DNA of 19,982 nucleotides. Origin: Actinoplanes liguriensis (GTDB lineage: Bacteria; Actinomycetota; Actinomycetes; Mycobacteriales; Micromonosporaceae). The notes under the pieces are model-generated. The model made no database searches. It saw only the letters and a list, made by a program, of their open reading frames with translations, and was not told the DNA's origin. Shown piece by piece: positions 334 through 5,682 of the stretch (its first letter is position 1; every line of letters begins with the position of its first letter). The stretch covers positions 14,217 to 34,198 of the forward strand of contig KL571200.1 in assembly GCA_000715855.1 (NCBI GenBank). The letters are read 5' to 3'. Position numbers and translations under genes: made by a program.

Positions 334-804
334 CTACAGCGGGCCGCGGCCGGAGCGGAGCAGCAGCAGGGCGACCTGGGTGCCGTCCGGGCCGAGCGCG
401 GCGCGGAAGCGGTCGACGATCTCGCGTTCGCGGGCCAGGACCAGGCGGGTTCCGCCGGACGCCATGCGGGTCTTGCCGACCTCCTGGGAGAGGCGGGACC
501 GTTCCTGCCAGAGGTCGATGATGGCCTGGTCGATCTCGTCGATCCGTTCGCGCATGGCGCGGATCTCGTCGGCGGCGAGCGGCCGGCCGGCGCCGGTCGA
601 GGCGTCCAGGGCGGTGGCCGCGGCGACGGACTTGTCGGTGACGGTCATCGAGCTCGCGGTCGCCTTGTCTGCGGCGGTTGCTGTGCCGGTTGTCGCCTTG
701 TCCGCGCCCGGCAGCGGCCCTGCGGGCGATTTGTCCGCGACGGCGGCCGGGCCGGCGGAGGGTGACTTGTCGGCGGCGGACTGGTCCATCACGTCGGCGG
801 TCAT
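334..804 (-). CDS. aroQ: Chorismate mutase, AroQ class (Rv0948c type)
   Basis: This enzyme rearranges chorismate to prephenate, the first step specific to Phe and Tyr synthesis, in the cytoplasm. The 156-residue product has a typical all-helical AroQ domain from about residue 76: MRERIDEIDQ with Arg85, then GKTRMASGGTRLV with Arg113, then the ending LGPDG...LLLLRSGRG. This closely resembles the short M. tuberculosis enzyme Rv0948c as I recall it, which is weakly active alone and is activated by complex formation with DAHP synthase. The same partnership is likely here but is inferred. The ATG at 804 is chosen because GAGGAG lies just upstream; Met53 (codon at 648) is a weaker alternative. The N-terminal 75 residues are an Ala/Thr/Ser-rich extension with five spaced Asp-Lys motifs, absent from the short homologue. 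The leader upstream looks like an attenuator. Confidence 0.93.
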   Translation of the reverse strand: MTADVMDQSAADKSPSAGPAAVADKSPAGPLPGADKATTGTATAADKATASSMTVTDKSVAAATALDASTGAGRPLAADEIRAMRERIDEIDQAIIDLWQERSRLSQEVGKTRMASGGTRLVLAREREIVDRFRAALGPDGTQVALLLLRSGRGPL

Positions 805-856
805 GTTCGTGCTCCTCGGGTGCTCATCGCCCCGGACAGCCCGGCCCGGGATGCAA

Positions 857-942
857 CAAGCCCCGGGCTGTGGAAGCCCGGGGCTTGAAGTAGGTCTGTC
901 GTTCAGGGGCGACCTACGGCTGCCGGACTTCCGGGGCCGTAG
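857..942 (-). promoter_or_regulatory. Candidate attenuator of chorismate mutase
   Basis: On the minus strand, CTACGGC (942-936) can pair with GCCGTAG (920-914), with an inner CCGG/CCGG helix. The overlapping GTAGGTC (917-911) can instead pair with GACCTAC (896-890). The two hairpins share 917-914 and so exclude each other. A perfect 13-bp GC-rich hairpin follows: CAAGCCCCGGGCT at 887-875, a 5-nt loop, and its complement at 869-857, followed by TTGCAT. Together with the FFYY leader ORF this is the architecture of ribosome-mediated attenuation. The exact link between the 2:3 hairpin and the terminator is unresolved: they do not overlap, so both could form. The final U-run is weak. Confidence 0.6.
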
Positions 943-968
943 TAAAAAAATCGCGCCTGCTGGATCAC
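903..968 (-). CDS. Putative Phe/Tyr leader peptide of chorismate mutase
   Basis: A 21-codon ORF starts at GTG (968-966) and ends at TGA (905-903). Residues 7-10 are Phe-Phe-Tyr-Tyr, encoded by TTT TTT TAC TAC at 950-939. Phe and Tyr are the end products of the pathway fed by chorismate mutase, whose gene starts about 100 bases downstream. The Tyr codons overlap the 5' arm of the first leader hairpin, and the stop codon lies in the loop of the alternative hairpin. TTT is rare in this GC-rich genome, so a pair of them stands out. There is no Shine-Dalgarno sequence; the predicted transcription start falls at about 969-968, so translation may be leaderless. The ORF, its codons and pairings are seen in the sequence. 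The attenuation role is inferred. Confidence 0.6.
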   Translation of the reverse strand: MIQQARFFYYGPGSPAAVGRP

Positions 969-975
969 GCAGCCG

Positions 976-1005
976 AGTATGCCCCGCTCCCGGACCGCCT
1001 CGCAA
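976..1005 (-). promoter_or_regulatory. Predicted promoter of the chorismate mutase leader
   Basis: On the minus strand, TTGCGA (1005-1000) and CATACT (981-976) are separated by 18 bases. The -10 differs from TATACT at one position. Transcription would begin at about 969-968, on or beside the GTG of the leader ORF, leaving a leader of about 165 bases before the enzyme's start codon. Confidence 0.5.
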
Positions 1006-1119
1006 GGAAACCGCCCGAACGTTGGGAACCGGCACACAACCTGCCCCGGACGAGCGTGTCGCGACGGTGTTGCCGGAGCGTCAGGTTCGTCGTAAGGGCA
1101 GGAAAGTCCCGCCTTGACT

Positions 1120-1141
1120 CTGCCCCTGGGGCAGACCCCAG
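1120..1141. repeat. Short GC palindrome
   Basis: CTGCCCCTGGGGCAG (1120-1134) is a perfect palindrome around one central base. The overlapping CTGGGG/CCCCAG pair (1126-1141) gives an alternative 6-bp hairpin with a 4-base loop. It lies between the nucleotidase terminator and the chorismate mutase promoter and may be a secondary terminator. No other feature is seen between 1013 and 1181. Confidence 0.35.
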
Positions 1142-1181
1142 CATGGTCTCAGGCGAACGATCCGGGGCGATTCCGAAAGAG

Positions 1182-1212
1182 CGGCCCCCCGACCGAGGAG
1201 GTCAGGGGGCCG
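1182..1212 (-). terminator. Intrinsic terminator of the 5'-nucleotidase gene
   Basis: CGGCCCCC and GGGGGCCG flank GACC/GGTC, with a 5-base loop. The single non-Watson-Crick position reads as G-U in the minus-strand RNA but as C-A on the plus strand, which assigns the orientation. The minus strand continues with CTCTTTC. It starts 14 bases after the nucleotidase stop codon. Confidence 0.75.
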
Positions 1213-1225
1213 GTCGAGCAATAGG

Positions 1226-3070
1226 TCAGGAGGTGGTGGCGATGCGGTTGGCAGGGCCGGGGGCAACGGTGCCCGTGGCGAGGTAGGAGGTGAGGGCGTC
1301 GATGTCGAAGCCCGGGGCGGTGACCACCTTGGCGGGGTCCACGACCAGGTTGGTGAAGCCGTCGCCACCGGCGGCCAGGAAGTTGTTCATGGTGACCTGA
1401 TAGGTGGCGGCCGGGTCGATCGGAGTGCCGTTCAGAGCGAGGTTGCTGACTCGCGAGCCGAGGGCAGCCGAGGCGCTCCAGGTGTAGGTGAAGCCCGCCG
1501 AGACCTGGAGGATCTTGGTGGTGGTCTGCCCGGCGTAACCGGCGAACTGCTGCTCCAGCACGCTCTTGAGCTGTGCGCCGGTGAGCGGCTCGGTGGCGAC
1601 CAGGTTGTTGAACGGCTGGACGGTGAACGCCTCGCCGTAGGTGACCTGGCCGTAAGCCTCGCCACCGGAGGACTGGTCGGCGTCGAGGTCGGAGCGGATG
1701 CCGCCCGGGTTCATCAGGGCGATCTGCGCACCGGCCGACGAGGTGTAGGCCAGCTGGGCGTCAGCGATCACGTCACCGAGCGGGCTCTCGCCGGCCGCGG
1801 TGGTGGTGCGCACGATGTCACCGCTGATGCTGCCGATCACCTTGTTGGCGAGCGGCGCGACGGCGGTGCGGTACTTGTCGGCCACCTTCTTCGCCGCGGC
1901 GTCGACGGTGTCCGGGTTCTTCAGGTAGACCCCGGCCACGTCCTTCTTCCACCCGCCGTTGCCGTCCGATACGCCGTTCTCCACGATCACGTTCTTCGCG
2001 GTGATCTCGGCGAACTTCCCGGTCCGCTTGTCCAGCGAGTAGTCGATGTCGGTGATCAGCTGGCCGTTGGTGCCAGCGCTGGTCACCACGGTTTCCTTGC
2101 CGGCCTTGTCCGGCAGTTTGCAGCTGTAGAAGCGGTGCGTGTGCCCGGACACCACGACACCGATCTCCGGGTTCAGGCCCTTGACGATGTCGACCACCGG
2201 GCCGGTGAAGTTCACGCAGTCCGAGACACCCGGGGTGGGTGTCGCCGAGCCCTGCGCGCCGCCCTCGTGGAGCAGCAGCACCTGAGCCTTGACCCCGAAC
2301 AGCTTGAGGATGTTGCTCCACTTGTTCGCGGTCACGATCTCGTCGGTGAAGTGCACGTTCTTGATCCCGGCCGGGTTCACGATGCCGGCCGTGCCCTCGA
2401 GCGTCAGGCCGATGAAGCCGACCGGCACGCCCTTGACGTACTTGATCTCGATGGGCGGCAGGATCGGCAGCCCGGTCTTGTTGTTGATCGTGTTCGCGGC
2501 GAGGTAGCTGAACTTCGCCCCGCGGTACGGGTCGCCGTCCTGGCATCCGTCGACCGGGTGACACCCGCCGCGCTGGATCCGGATCAGCTCGTCCACGCCC
2601 TCGTCGAACTCGTGGTTGCCCACCGAGCTGACCTGCAGACCGATCGTGTTCATCAGCTCGATCGTCGGCTCGTCGTGGAACGCGGCGCTGACGAGCGGAG
2701 ACGCCCCGATCAGGTCACCGGCGCCGGCCGTGATCGTCTCCCGGCCCTCCTGCGAAGCCTCGGCGCGCAATTTCTTCAGGTACGTCGCGAGGTACTCCAC
2801 GCCACCGGCCGGGGTGCTCGTGCCGCCGGCGTTGACGACGGCGCCGCTGCCGGTCGGTGGGTCGATCGCGCCGTGGAAGTCGTTGTAGCTGAGGATCTGG
2901 CCCTTGACCAGCGCAGCCCCGTGCGACGCGCCGTAGGCGGCCGTCACCGGGGTGAACTCGGCAGGCGGCGCGGCGGCCGCGGACTGTGCGGCGGGCATCG
3001 TGGAGAGCGCGCCGACGACGGCCAGCGCGACGGCCGGTACGCCGAGACGCCGCCGTAGCGGAGAAGTCAT
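1226..3070 (-). CDS. Secreted 5'-nucleotidase / bifunctional metallophosphatase
   Basis: This is an exported enzyme that dephosphorylates extracellular nucleotides to nucleosides and phosphate, probably with two divalent metals. The 614-residue product begins with a clear signal peptide (MTSPLRRR, a hydrophobic stretch, then an AQSAAAA region near residue 34). The calcineurin-like domain shows Asp64/His66 (NDFHG), Asp119 (GAGDL), Asn152-His153-Glu154 (GNHEFD), His268 and the GHTH motif at 309-312. The C-terminal 5_nucleotid_C domain (about 408-580) has NPGGIR (454-459) and the substrate-stacking QPFNN (485-489). There is no LPXTG motif or C-terminal membrane segment, so release into the medium is likely. 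The ATG at 3070 is chosen because it begins the signal peptide; GGGGA lies about 10 bases upstream. It is transcribed alone, divergent from pcrA. Substrate (UMP, AMP, UDP-sugar) is not decided by sequence. Confidence 0.92.
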   Translation of the reverse strand: MTSPLRRRLGVPAVALAVVGALSTMPAAQSAAAAPPAEFTPVTAAYGASHGAALVKGQILSYNDFHGAIDPPTGSGAVVNAGGTSTPAGGVEYLATYLKKLRAEASQEGRETITAGAGDLIGASPLVSAAFHDEPTIELMNTIGLQVSSVGNHEFDEGVDELIRIQRGGCHPVDGCQDGDPYRGAKFSYLAANTINNKTGLPILPPIEIKYVKGVPVGFIGLTLEGTAGIVNPAGIKNVHFTDEIVTANKWSNILKLFGVKAQVLLLHEGGAQGSATPTPGVSDCVNFTGPVVDIVKGLNPEIGVVVSGHTHRFYSCKLPDKAGKETVVTSAGTNGQLITDIDYSLDKRTGKFAEITAKNVIVENGVSDGNGGWKKDVAGVYLKNPDTVDAAAKKVADKYRTAVAPLANKVIGSISGDIVRTTTAAGESPLGDVIADAQLAYTSSAGAQIALMNPGGIRSDLDADQSSGGEAYGQVTYGEAFTVQPFNNLVATEPLTGAQLKSVLEQQFAGYAGQTTTKILQVSAGFTYTWSASAALGSRVSNLALNGTPIDPAATYQVTMNNFLAAGGDGFTNLVVDPAKVVTAPGFDIDALTSYLATGTVAPGPANRIATTS

Positions 3071-3133
3071 GATATTCGATCCCCGAATCTTCAGTGGATG
3101 TTCGAGCAACTGGATCAGACTCGCTGATCGGTC

Positions 3134-3162
3134 GATGTGACGCCACCACTTCGAGGTGTCAA
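3134..3162 (-). promoter_or_regulatory. Possible promoter of the 5'-nucleotidase gene
   Basis: A perfect TTGACA (-35) lies at 3162-3157 on the minus strand. The hexamer 17 bases downstream, CACATC at 3139-3134, is a poor -10, so the promoter is only suggested. It sits in the 170-base divergent interval between this gene and pcrA. Confidence 0.35.
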
Positions 3163-3224
3163 GTAGATTGCCGACGACCGATGGCGCGGCCGCCGTGGCG
3201 CGTTTTCGTGTCAGAGGGTCGGCA

Positions 3225-3230
3225 TACACT
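3225..3230 (+). promoter_or_regulatory. Predicted -10 box of pcrA
   Basis: TACACT fits TANNNT and ends 10 bases before the ATG at 3241. There is no Shine-Dalgarno sequence in the 10-base gap, so the pcrA message is probably leaderless or nearly so. No good -35 is visible. Confidence 0.45.
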
Positions 3231-3240
3231 GGCTCCCGCG

Positions 3241-5682
3241 ATGCGACCTTCTTCAGAACCTTCCGACAACGCCCTGTTCGCGCTGCCCACGGTGGCCCCG
3301 CCGGCGCCGGTGGCGGTTCGCCCCGCGCACGCTCCGCCACCCCGCCCGTCGCGGCGGATCGACCCCGGCTCGCTGCTCGAGGGGCTGAACGGTCCTCAGC
3401 GGGACGCGGTGATCCACGCCGGCGGGCCGCTGCTGATCGTGGCCGGCGCCGGCTCGGGCAAGACCCGGGTGCTGACGCACCGGATCGCCTATCTGCTGGC
3501 CGCGCGGGACGTGCACCCCGGCGAGATCATCGCGATCACGTTCACGAACAAGGCGGCCGGCGAGATGAAGGAGCGGGTGGCCCACCTGGTCGGCCCGCGC
3601 GCCCGGTTGATGTGGGTGTCGACGTTCCACTCGGCCTGTGTCCGGATCCTGCGGGCCGAGCACGAGCACGCCGGGCTGAAGAGCACGTTCTCGATCTACG
3701 ACGCGGACGACTCGCGCCGGTTGATGCAGCTGGTCGCCCGCGAGCTGGATCTGGACCCGAAGCGCTACACCGCGCGGGGCCTGGCCGCCCAGGTGTCGAA
3801 CCTGAAGAACGAGCTGGTCGACCCGGAGGAGTTCAAGGGCCGGGCGAGCGGGCCGAACGAGCGGGCCGTCGCCGAGGCGTATGAGCTGTATCAGCGCCGT
3901 CTGCGCGAGGCGCACGCGCTGGACTTCGACGACATCATCATGGCCACCGTGCACCTGTTCCAGTCGCATCCGCTGGTCGCCGAGGCGTACCGTCGTCGTT
4001 TCCGCCACGTGCTGGTGGACGAGTATCAGGACACCAACCACGCGCAGTACACGTTGATCCGCGAGCTGGTCGGCAAGGACGACGAGGACCCGTCCGAGCT
4101 GTGCGTGGTCGGTGACGCGGACCAGTCGATCTACGCGTTCCGCGGCGCGACGATCCGCAACATCCTGGAGTTCGAGCGGGATTACCCGTCCGCGCGCACC
4201 ATCCTGCTGGAGCAGAATTACCGCTCCACCCAGACGATCCTCTCCGCGGCGAACGCGGTGATCGACCGGAACACGTCGCGCAAGCCGAAGCGTCTCTGGA
4301 GCGACCAGGGTGCCGGCGAGCAGATCGTGGGATATGTCGCCGACACCGAGCACGCCGAGGCGGACTGGGTGGCCCGGGAGATCGACCGGCTCTCCGACCG
4401 GCACGAGGTCCGCCCCGGTGAGGTGGCCGTCTTCTACCGGACGAACAACCAGTCCCGTGTGTTCGAGGAGGTGTTCATCCGCGTCGGCCTGCCCTACAAG
4501 GTGGTCGGCGGGGTGCGGTTCTACGAGCGCAAGGAGGTTCGCGACGCGTTGGCGTACCTTCGCGCGGTCGTGAACGACGACGACACGGTCAGCATCCGCC
4601 GCGTGCTGAACACGCCGAAGCGGGGGATCGGCGACCGGGCCGAGGCGTGCGTGGAGGCGCTGTCGGGCCGCGACCGGATCTCTTTCGGGCAGGCGCTGCG
4701 CCACGCGCGGAACGCGCCGGGCATCTCCACCCGCGCGGCGAACAGCATCGCCGACTTCGTGCAACTGCTCGACGACCTGCGGGAGCTGGCCGCCACCGCC
4801 CCGCCGGAGGAGGTGCTGGAAGCCGTCCTGCAGCGCTCCGGTCTGCTCAGCGAGCTGGAGGAGAGTCTCGACCCGCAGGACCAGGGCCGGGTGGAGAACC
4901 TGCAGGAGCTCGTCAGCGTCGCCCGGGAGTACACCGAACGGGTGGAGTCCCAGGCCGACGAGGAGAATCCGGAGGCGCCGGCCGCCACGCTGGCCGGTTT
5001 CCTGGAGCAGGTGGCGCTGGTCGCGGATGCCGACCAGATCCCCTCCGACGACCCGGATCATCAGGGTGTGGTCACGCTGATGACCCTGCACACCGCGAAG
5101 GGGCTGGAGTTCCCCGTGGTGTTCCTGACCGGTTTGGAGGACGGCATCTTCCCGCACATGCGGGCGATGTCGGACAACACCGAGCTGGAGGAGGAGCGCC
5201 GCCTGGCCTATGTCGGGATCACCCGCGCCCGCCAGCGCCTCTACCTGTCCCGGGCGGTGACCCGGTCGCAGTGGGGCCAGCCGCAGTACAACCCGCCGTC
5301 CCGGTTCACCGACGAGTTGCCCGCCGAGCTGGTGCGCTGGGAGCGCACCGGCGCGTCGTACACGTCCTGGTCCGGCACCGGTGGCGGGGTGGGTGGCCGG
5401 GGTGGCGGTGACCGTGGCCGTGGTGGTGGCTTCGCCGGGGGCACGCCGAAGGCGCAGCGCATCGCCGAGCGCCTCGGCATCGACGCCAGTCGGCTGTCCA
5501 CCGCGAGCGAGTTGAAGCAGGCGCCGAAGGTGGAGCCCGGCGACCGGGTCAACCATCAGCGTTACGGCCTGGGCCGGGTCGTGGCAGTCGAGGGGCAGGG
5601 CCCGGGCGCCCGGGCGCAGATCGACTTCGGTGACCAGACCATGTGGTTGATCATGCGCCACGCCCCGATCGAGAAGATCTAG
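3241..5682 (+). CDS. pcrA: ATP-dependent DNA helicase PcrA/UvrD
   Basis: This superfamily 1A 3'-to-5' helicase acts in nucleotide excision repair, clearing of replication-transcription conflicts and plasmid replication. The 813-residue product has the whole motif set: Q motif GLNGPQRDAV (Gln53), Walker A GAGSGKT (69-75), TFTNKAAGEM, TFHS, DEYQDTN (Asp260-Glu261), VVGDADQSIYAFRGA, EQNYRST, TLHTAKGLEFPVVF and EEERRLAYVGITRAR. A Gly/Arg-rich linker (about 705-730) leads to a C-terminal Tudor-like segment (PGDRVNHQRYGLGRVV to the end) that in PcrA homologues binds RNA polymerase. An upstream in-frame ATG at 3094 would add 49 unconserved residues; the ATG at 3241, ten bases after a -10 box, is preferred. 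Residues 1-40 are Pro-rich and poorly conserved. Its position next to chorismate mutase matches M. tuberculosis uvrD1. Confidence 0.97.
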   Translation: MRPSSEPSDNALFALPTVAPPAPVAVRPAHAPPPRPSRRIDPGSLLEGLNGPQRDAVIHAGGPLLIVAGAGSGKTRVLTHRIAYLLAARDVHPGEIIAITFTNKAAGEMKERVAHLVGPRARLMWVSTFHSACVRILRAEHEHAGLKSTFSIYDADDSRRLMQLVARELDLDPKRYTARGLAAQVSNLKNELVDPEEFKGRASGPNERAVAEAYELYQRRLREAHALDFDDIIMATVHLFQSHPLVAEAYRRRFRHVLVDEYQDTNHAQYTLIRELVGKDDEDPSELCVVGDADQSIYAFRGATIRNILEFERDYPSARTILLEQNYRSTQTILSAANAVIDRNTSRKPKRLWSDQGAGEQIVGYVADTEHAEADWVAREIDRLSDRHEVRPGEVAVFYRTNNQSRVFEEVFIRVGLPYKVVGGVRFYERKEVRDALAYLRAVVNDDDTVSIRRVLNTPKRGIGDRAEACVEALSGRDRISFGQALRHARNAPGISTRAANSIADFVQLLDDLRELAATAPPEEVLEAVLQRSGLLSELEESLDPQDQGRVENLQELVSVAREYTERVESQADEENPEAPAATLAGFLEQVALVADADQIPSDDPDHQGVVTLMTLHTAKGLEFPVVFLTGLEDGIFPHMRAMSDNTELEEERRLAYVGITRARQRLYLSRAVTRSQWGQPQYNPPSRFTDELPAELVRWERTGASYTSWSGTGGGVGGRGGGDRGRGGGFAGGTPKAQRIAERLGIDASRLSTASELKQAPKVEPGDRVNHQRYGLGRVVAVEGQGPGARAQIDFGDQTMWLIMRHAPIEKI

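What the first reader, a model, noticed from the sequence alone, without database searches (positions are those of the whole stretch)
903..968. Leader peptide with Phe-Phe-Tyr-Tyr upstream of chorismate mutase
A 21-codon ORF in the 5' leader carries TTT TTT TAC TAC (950-939 on the minus strand). Chorismate mutase makes prephenate, the precursor of exactly these two amino acids, so the codons match the pathway products. TTT is rare in a genome of this GC content, which makes a chance pair unlikely. Ribosome-mediated attenuation with such codons is established for proteobacterial pheA and trp operons. I know of no description of a combined Phe/Tyr leader on this AroQ-type gene of the Rv0948c class.
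Basis: partly seen in the sequence, partly recalled or inferred. Interest (0 to 1): 0.85.

Follow-up and report, generated by a model that had tools for sequence, protein, structure and literature searches.

The report
Phe/Tyr attenuator leading chorismate mutase
A short conserved leader gene, probably read from the very start of the messenger RNA, appears to let these soil bacteria switch on the enzyme that makes the precursor of phenylalanine and tyrosine only when those two amino acids run short, and look-alike leaders turn up in related families of bacteria.

Summary
The ORF at 968..903 (minus) reads VIQQARFFYYGPGSPAAVGRP*. It precedes the genome's only CM_2 chorismate mutase match. A matching leader stood upstream in 88 of 88 family CM loci picked by protein. 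A model trained on such leaders rings in 198 of 200 family genomes. All 39 inspected hits outside the family precede a chorismate mutase. Length changes are mostly in frame and aromatic residues interchange, while the C-terminus sometimes changes frame. The RNA keeps a hairpin whose first strand holds the last Tyr codon, and a covarying antiterminator and terminator that share a strand. A ribosome on the Phe/Tyr codons frees the antiterminator in silico. The start codon lies 6-7 nt after a -10-like hexamer, so the leader is probably leaderless. Elsewhere in the class similar leaders precede DAHP synthase and add Trp: 17 of 19 against 4 of 142. This fits ribosome-mediated transcription attenuation: a known mechanism at a new gene. 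Precedents: pheL (E. coli), aroR (C. glutamicum, Phe-Tyr-Phe). I found no report of it, but the Actinoplanes RNA-seq paper was not held. No expression data.

The parts
1000..1005 (-). -35-like TTGCGA, 18 nt before the -10
   Evidence: read by eye; the sigma-70 scan found no promoter in 780..1250
976..981 (-). -10-like CATACT, ends 7 nt before the leader start codon
   Evidence: [TCG]AN[AG]NT at gap 6 or 7 in 154 of 161 leaders, at most 3 at any gap other than 6-8; most family starts were picked with a -10 rule
903..968 (-). leader ORF GTG...TGA, VIQQARFFYYGPGSPAAVGRP*, probably leaderless
   Evidence: SD-like motif upstream in 4 of 161 leaders
939..950 (-). regulatory codons TTT TTT TAC TAC (Phe Phe Tyr Tyr)
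   Evidence: F in 142 of 142 and Y in 140 of 142 CM leaders
914..942 (-). hairpin A (1:2): CTACGGC 942-936 with GCCGTAG 920-914, inner CCGG/CCGG; strand 1 contains the last Tyr codon
   Evidence: 96.9% of cells paired in A1, 4 pairs with double changes; 85.6% in A2, weak covariation
923..932 (-). antiterminator 5' strand GGAAGTCCGG (loop and inner 3' arm of hairpin A)
   Evidence: pairs with 881..872: 92.7% in A1, 86.0% in A2, double-changed cells above all 500 shuffles
911..917 (-). helix B 5' strand GTAGGTC, overlaps the 3' arm of hairpin A
   Evidence: pairs with 896..890, 88.1% in A1, no excess covariation; own partners beat swapped ones
890..896 (-). helix B 3' strand GACCTAC
872..881 (-). 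antiterminator 3' strand CCGGGCTTCC, shared with the terminator 5' arm and loop
858..886 (-). terminator hairpin AAGCCCCGGGC/GCCCGGGGCTT, weak U-tract in this genus group
   Evidence: 98.4% of cells paired, 14 double-changed cells, 0/500 shuffles; terminator scan needing 5 T in 8 found none in 780..1250
812..817 (-). GAGGAG Shine-Dalgarno of the chorismate mutase gene
   Evidence: GAGGAGC followed by a start codon in 48 of 48 leaders of the Actinoplanes group, window included
334..804 (-). chorismate mutase (AroQ class, Rv0948c type), ATG 804-802
   Evidence: NCBIfam NF005894 106.9 bits, TIGR01808 76.3 bits; PDB Rv0948c chains

Best explanation
The region is a ribosome-mediated transcription attenuator that senses charged tRNA-Phe and tRNA-Tyr and controls the chorismate mutase gene. 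Transcription starts at or next to the GTG, and a ribosome loads directly on the 5' end (inferred). If Phe-tRNA or Tyr-tRNA is short, the ribosome stalls on TTT TTT TAC TAC and covers strand 1 of hairpin A. The loop of A and the following GTAGGTC then pair with the 5' arm of the terminator and with GACCTAC (antiterminator AT plus helix B), so the terminator does not form in time and RNA polymerase reads into the mutase gene. If both are plentiful the ribosome passes on to the UGA, which sits in the loop of B, blocks B, and the terminator forms. With no translation, A forms and the terminator forms too. Shown here: the ORF, its conservation, the pairing and its covariation, the folding of the stalled and free states. 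Inferred: start site, termination, response to Phe and Tyr.
For: Conservation: leaders in 88 of 88 protein-picked family CM loci (L049 and L093 are one locus) and R2 matches in 198 of 200 family genomes (place before a mutase not checked for each). Start to TAYGG distance 18-33 nt, in frame in 136 of 139; F/Y/W fill 351 of 556 codons before it in frame, 105 and 150 of 556 in the other frames. Covariation: AT 37 double-changed cells against 15.1 +- 7.2 in A1 and 35 against 17.3 +- 2.8 in A2, 0 of 500 shuffles each; terminator 14 against 1.5 and 31 against 12.4. Folding up to the terminator loop: free RNA A 0.99, AT 0.01; A site on Phe7, Phe8 or Tyr9 AT 0.95-0.98, on Tyr10 0.67. Over 161 leaders AT pairing peaks 1-2 codons before the Tyr of YG (0.81) and is 0.08 five codons past it. 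Target: sole CM_2 match, on the branch to Phe and Tyr; leaders before DAHP synthase add Trp.
Against: Once the 3' terminator arm is made, the equilibrium fold is the terminator in every ribosome state (0.99-1.0), so antitermination must be kinetic. With the ribosome at the stop codon AT alone still scores 0.89 in silico, and 0.66, 0.72, 0.63 on average in family, order and class CM leaders. Early stalls give AT too: 0.81-0.87 at codons 2-6 of the window, about 0.61 on average; the aromatic stall beats the free RNA by 0.2 in 69 of 90, 25 of 39 and 11 of 13 CM leaders. The number of AT pairs with any double change is no higher than in shuffles (3 against 2.0 in A1, 3 against 3.6 in A2). Helix B shows no excess covariation and hairpin A little in A2 (26 of 500 shuffles reach it). 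The U-tract is weak and the strict scan found no terminator. No expression data.
Confidence: 0.85

Rival explanations
1. The same leader and ribosome stalling act at another level: Rho-dependent termination or masking of the mutase Shine-Dalgarno, with the GC hairpin only an RNA-stability element.
For: Weak U-tract in the window and no hit in the terminator scan; some actinobacterial leaders lack clear terminators (PMC1262725, parts 1-2 of 3 read; PMC8079986 passages).
Against: The hairpin keeps 98.4% pairing with covariation and overlaps the covarying antiterminator strand; 4 or more T in 10 nt at its end in 143 of the 159 leaders where the 3' arm was found (no chance control was made).
Confidence: 0.1
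2. The peptide itself is the product or acts as a nascent-chain arrest peptide.
For: The C-terminus YG(T/S)GSPAAVGRA is conserved in much of the family.
Against: That stretch is the RNA of hairpin A and B; by a motif rule 15 of 142 CM leaders have a C-terminus in another frame or diverged (the rule misses L010), several with the RNA strands kept; aromatic residues interchange.
Confidence: 0.02
3. No leader peptide: the conserved stretch is promoter DNA or an N-terminal extension of the mutase.
For: The mutase frame is open back to the leader start in 34 of 48 Actinoplanes-group leaders; a -10-like box precedes it.
Against: That frame is closed in 14 of 48; conservation runs about 110 nt past the -10 with in-frame length changes; GAGGAG precedes the mutase start in 48 of 48.
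Confidence: 0.03

Closest known systems
E. coli pheA attenuator with pheL leader (PMC11802643, passages seen)
   Same: Leader peptide sensing charged tRNA-Phe; the controlled gene includes a chorismate mutase.
   Different: pheA is a fused mutase-dehydratase and pheL is reported to follow Phe only; ours has Phe and Tyr codons, is probably leaderless, and matches no Rfam family.
C. glutamicum aroR leader before aroF (Neshat 2014, not held; PMC4046766 and PMC11802643, passages seen)
   Same: Actinobacterial leader with Phe-Tyr-Phe on an aromatic-pathway gene.
   Different: Controls DAHP synthase, not the mutase; reported to respond to Phe but not Tyr.
Leader peptides of Streptomyces lividans, several leaderless (trpL, ilvL, leuL and others; PMC8079986, passages seen)
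   Same: Leader ORF at the transcript 5' end before an amino-acid gene.
   Different: The eight listed depend on Leu, Trp, Ala, Ile, Met or Thr; none on Phe/Tyr and none before a chorismate mutase.
Mycobacterial ilvB1 attenuator (PMC13236596) and cysteine-rich uORFs on leaderless mRNAs (PMC4633059), passages seen
   Same: uORF attenuation before amino-acid genes in an actinobacterium; leaderless uORFs in the cysteine case.
   Different: Other amino acids and genes; the cysteine genes are described as under translation attenuation (PMC13236596 passage).

Membership tests
Ribosome-mediated transcription attenuators (trpL/pheL type) | Short leader ORF with codons for the end products of the downstream enzyme | tested here: met
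Ribosome-mediated transcription attenuators (trpL/pheL type) | Mutually exclusive terminator and antiterminator, with a 1:2 hairpin at the regulatory codons | tested here: met
   pairing and covariation (weak for A and B); folding with ribosome (stop-codon state not clean)
Ribosome-mediated transcription attenuators (trpL/pheL type) | Intrinsic terminator with U-tract | tested here: inconclusive
   stem conserved but strict scan negative in the window; 4 or more T in 10 nt in 47 of 48 Actinoplanes-group leaders, no chance control
Ribosome-mediated transcription attenuators (trpL/pheL type) | Read-through rises when the cognate amino acid is limiting | not testable with these tools
   no expression data
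Rfam leader families | Match to a covariance model | tested here: not met
   0 matches at gathering over the window; the 4 matches at E<=1 in 700..1250 are not amino-acid leader families
Leaderless actinobacterial leader peptides | Start codon at the transcription start | tested here: inconclusive
   -10-like hexamer 6-7 nt before the start codon in 154 of 161; no 5'-end data
AroR/aroF leader of C. glutamicum | Sequence homology with aroR | not tested
   aroR sequence not fetched

The most novel reading that the evidence does not exclude
One ancient attenuator module, spread through the class that holds this genus, sits at the two control points of aromatic biosynthesis, and its regulatory codons track the branch: Phe and Tyr before chorismate mutase, Phe, Tyr and Trp before type I DAHP synthase. 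It would be a leaderless multi-amino-acid sensor whose input set evolves by codon swaps on a fixed RNA frame.
Probability: 0.5. Interest if true: 0.75.

Novelty: new member of a known kind. Interest (0 to 1): 0.62.

Why it matters
The 2005 survey of actinobacterial RNA elements found none for Phe or Tyr operons (PMC1262725, parts 1-2 of 3 read; no Micromonosporaceae in its set), and the S. lividans RNA-seq survey lists none (PMC8079986, passages). If right, the entry step to Phe and Tyr is under attenuation in this family, in many families of its order and in some beyond, among them antibiotic producers, and many unannotated leader genes follow. aroR is reported to answer Phe but not Tyr; here the codon mix varies naturally between Phe-rich and Tyr-rich, so whether a mixed leader reads one or both amino acids becomes directly testable.

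Tried and rejected
Rfam: nothing at gathering; the best weak hit (flg-Rhizobiales, plus strand 857-959) overlaps the hairpins on the other strand and is far below its cut-off. Consensus promoter and terminator scans of 780..1250 found neither. Leaders before the genome's DAHP synthase (type II, L209) and prephenate dehydratase (L210): no short upstream ORF with an aromatic run like this one (the only ORF listed, before L209, is by eye the end of the preceding gene; one search took the wrong ORF for L210 and was redone). A second copy of the element in the own genome: only the window locus stands out, the next hit is its reverse complement. Helix B as the antiterminator on its own: rejected, because it does not overlap the terminator; it is nested inside AT. 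For DAHP synthase leaders the ribosome folding test failed to separate states (0.62 free, 0.65 stalled; gain of 0.2 in 5 of 19), so their mechanism rests on codon content, own-versus-swapped pairing (-21.30 against -19.29 +- 0.55) and architecture. Of 40 class-level hits inspected (97 of 296 genomes had hits), 8 had neither gene nor leader.

Full report
WHAT IS THERE. On the minus strand, 98 bases before the ATG of a chorismate mutase gene (804..334), lies GTG ATC CAG CAG GCG CGA TTT TTT TAC TAC GGC CCC GGA AGT CCG GCA GCC GTA GGT CGC CCC TGA at 968..903. The gene is the Rv0948c-type AroQ enzyme (NF005894 106.9 bits, TIGR01808 76.3 bits; PDB chains of Rv0948c) and the only CM_2 match in this 12.4-Mb, 556-contig, 93% complete genome. 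The aromatic run is unique in the window and absent from 200 shuffles.

CONSERVATION. CM loci found by protein, blind to the leader: one search gave 53 loci of named genomes. The 48 from Actinoplanes and relatives plus Actinocatenispora carry the leader; in the five distant ones (L050-L054) none was found. Another 40 loci that I picked (31 other genera of the family and one of the window's own) also carry it; L091 and L094 escaped the -10 rule and were placed by hand. Of these 88, L049 and L093 are the same locus and L028/L124 and L034/L039 have identical leaders. The 30 loci that itself stored (one the window's own; they may repeat species) match model R2 at 93.7-113.5 bits. R2 has a match at E<=0.001 in 198 of 200 family genomes, 184 of 184 good ones and 43 of 44 genera; the two misses are 69% and 77% complete; two matches are weak (G013 6.8e-5, G030 1.1e-5), and I did not check that every match lies before a mutase.

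CODING CONSTRAINT. Peptides vary as VIQQARFFYYGTGSPAAVGRS, VIQQTRFFYGTG.., VIQQARFFTYGTG.., VIQRARFYDYGTG.., VFGQRYYFYYGTG.., VSLQARYYFFYGSG... Over 142 CM leaders (90 family, 39 order, 13 class; three identical pairs kept) F occurs in 142 and Y in 140; the two without Y are L005 and L010, where the T run is one base shorter and the frame after FF changes. The strand-1 motif TAYGG is in frame with the start codon in 136 of the 139 leaders that have it although the distance varies from 18 to 33 nt. In L023, L048, L087, L108, L119, L175 and L201 the C-terminus too is in another frame or diverged. So the aromatic codons, not the tail, are kept as peptide.

RNA. Alignment A1 holds 80 of 89 family leaders, window included: L032, L039, L093 and L124 were dropped as near-duplicates, and L005, L010, L025, L042 and L046 were also left out. 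Cells paired: hairpin A 96.9%, helix B 88.1%, antiterminator AT 92.7%, terminator T 98.4%; best slid controls 46.6, 36.0, 63.7 and 64.5%. AT and T exceed all 500 shuffles for double-changed cells; B does not; the count of AT pairs with any double change is ordinary (3, shuffles 2.0). A2 (20 family and 37 of 39 order leaders) gives AT 86.0% with 35 double-changed cells against 17.3 (again an ordinary number of pairs, 3 against 3.6), T 97.9% with 31 against 12.4, A 85.6% with 7 against 3.7, which 26 of 500 shuffles reach. In the order set AT is often GGACTCCGG/CCGGAGTCC instead of GGAAGTCCGG/CCGGGCTTCC. With partners swapped between leaders the pairing weakens: AT -20.08 own against -17.21 swapped, B -10.82 against -9.38 kcal/mol, 129 leaders; the drop is smaller within the family (AT -20.33 against -18.53). 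A and AT+B exclude each other; AT and T share CCGGGCTTCC; B is nested in AT.

RIBOSOME LOGIC. With RNA made up to the terminator loop, the free window leader forms A (0.99); with the A site at Phe7, Phe8 or Tyr9 it forms AT (0.95-0.98) and B (1.0); at Tyr10 AT falls to 0.67. Over 161 leaders AT pairing is highest at the aromatic codons (0.81) and lowest a few codons past YG (0.08), but it is about 0.61 for ribosomes on the first codons and rises again near the stop. Two results cut the other way: the finished terminator wins at equilibrium in every state, and a ribosome at the stop leaves AT possible without B. Antitermination is therefore a race, as I recall it is in the classical cases. The calculation ignores the bulk of the ribosome.

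START. A hexamer [TCG]AN[AG]NT ends 6 or 7 nt before the start codon in 154 of 161 leaders (90 of 90 family, 33 of 39 order, 13 of 13 class CM, 18 of 19 DAHP synthase), against at most 3 at any gap other than 6-8 up to 40; SD-like motifs occur in 4 of 161. Most family starts were chosen by such a rule and the models begin at the start codon, so this is supportive, not independent. I infer a leaderless leader mRNA.

BREADTH. R1 over 397 genomes of the order, the family included: 298 with E<=0.01. I fetched 40 of the listed places, 39 outside the family in nine families: all 40 precede a chorismate mutase (tblastn E 2.3e-11 or better) and encode leaders such as ..RFFYGTRTPAPVIA, VLTQTFEFFYGPG.., VVRLTARFFYGSGHPAAVIVV; L194 (VFSYG) has only two aromatics and fell below the script's ORF filter. 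R2 over 296 genomes of the class: 97 with E<=0.001. Of 40 fetched, 12 precede a mutase by tblastn and L242 by eye (six of these 13 belong to one more family of the same order, seven lie outside the order), 19 precede a DAHP synthase by motif, 8 have neither. Two DAHP synthases were checked (NF006421, TIGR01361).

CODONS TRACK THE BRANCH. DAHP synthase feeds Phe, Tyr and Trp; its leaders read MQRNFWRFYGYRP.., MRTAFWFWYGDG.., and 17 of 19 hold Trp (16 inside the aromatic cluster), against 4 of 142 mutase leaders (1 inside). Thirteen of the 19 come from one family (f31), so the rows are not independent and I rest nothing on the Fisher value. Two DAHP synthase leaders (L266, L267) lack Trp. Whether the two sets share an origin was not tested; R2 was trained on mutase leaders, which favours look-alikes.

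LITERATURE. Searches listed no paper whose title, abstract start or passages seen report a leader at an actinobacterial chorismate mutase; several lists were capped (68: 15 of 2,459; 84: 15 of 1,081; 11: 25 of 53; 54: 10 of 32; 67: 12 of 19). Known: aroR with Phe-Tyr-Phe before aroF (PMC4046766 and PMC11802643, passages), pheL before pheA (PMC11802643, passages), eight S. lividans leaders (PMC8079986, passages), none of them this one. Wolf et al. 2017 on Actinoplanes SE50/110 and Neshat et al. 2014 are not held; the former is cited for leader peptides in Actinobacteria and might mention this one. Novelty is claimed only within that limit.

Noticed in passing
L253-L267, L270, L272, L274, L277 (about base 300 of the oriented locus): Leaders rich in Phe, Tyr and mostly Trp (e.g. 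MQRNFWRFYGYRPDTPVACRALR, MRTAFWFWYGDGPESVRHLTLR) before type I DAHP synthase in six families of the class.
   Followed up: partly
L005:1419, L010:1419: The T7 run of the leader is T6, which shifts the frame after FF and ends the ORF at a TAG; a real variant or a homopolymer error in draft genomes.
   Followed up: no
L242:301: A leader with two aromatic clusters, MTRSAYFYGTGFFYEKSPAAVDAV, the second downstream of YG where hairpin A lies elsewhere.
   Followed up: no
window 625-802 (minus): The N-terminal part of the mutase holds repeated DK(S/A) units; many relatives align only from about residue 26 or 60 on.
   Followed up: no
window 1180-1220 (minus): GC-rich inverted repeat after the 5'-nucleotidase-like gene (1226-3340), by eye a possible terminator, so the leader may have its own transcription unit.
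   Followed up: no
family genomes: Many genomes give two R2 matches; in the loci the weaker one lies on the opposite strand over the terminator; the rest were not inspected.
   Followed up: partly
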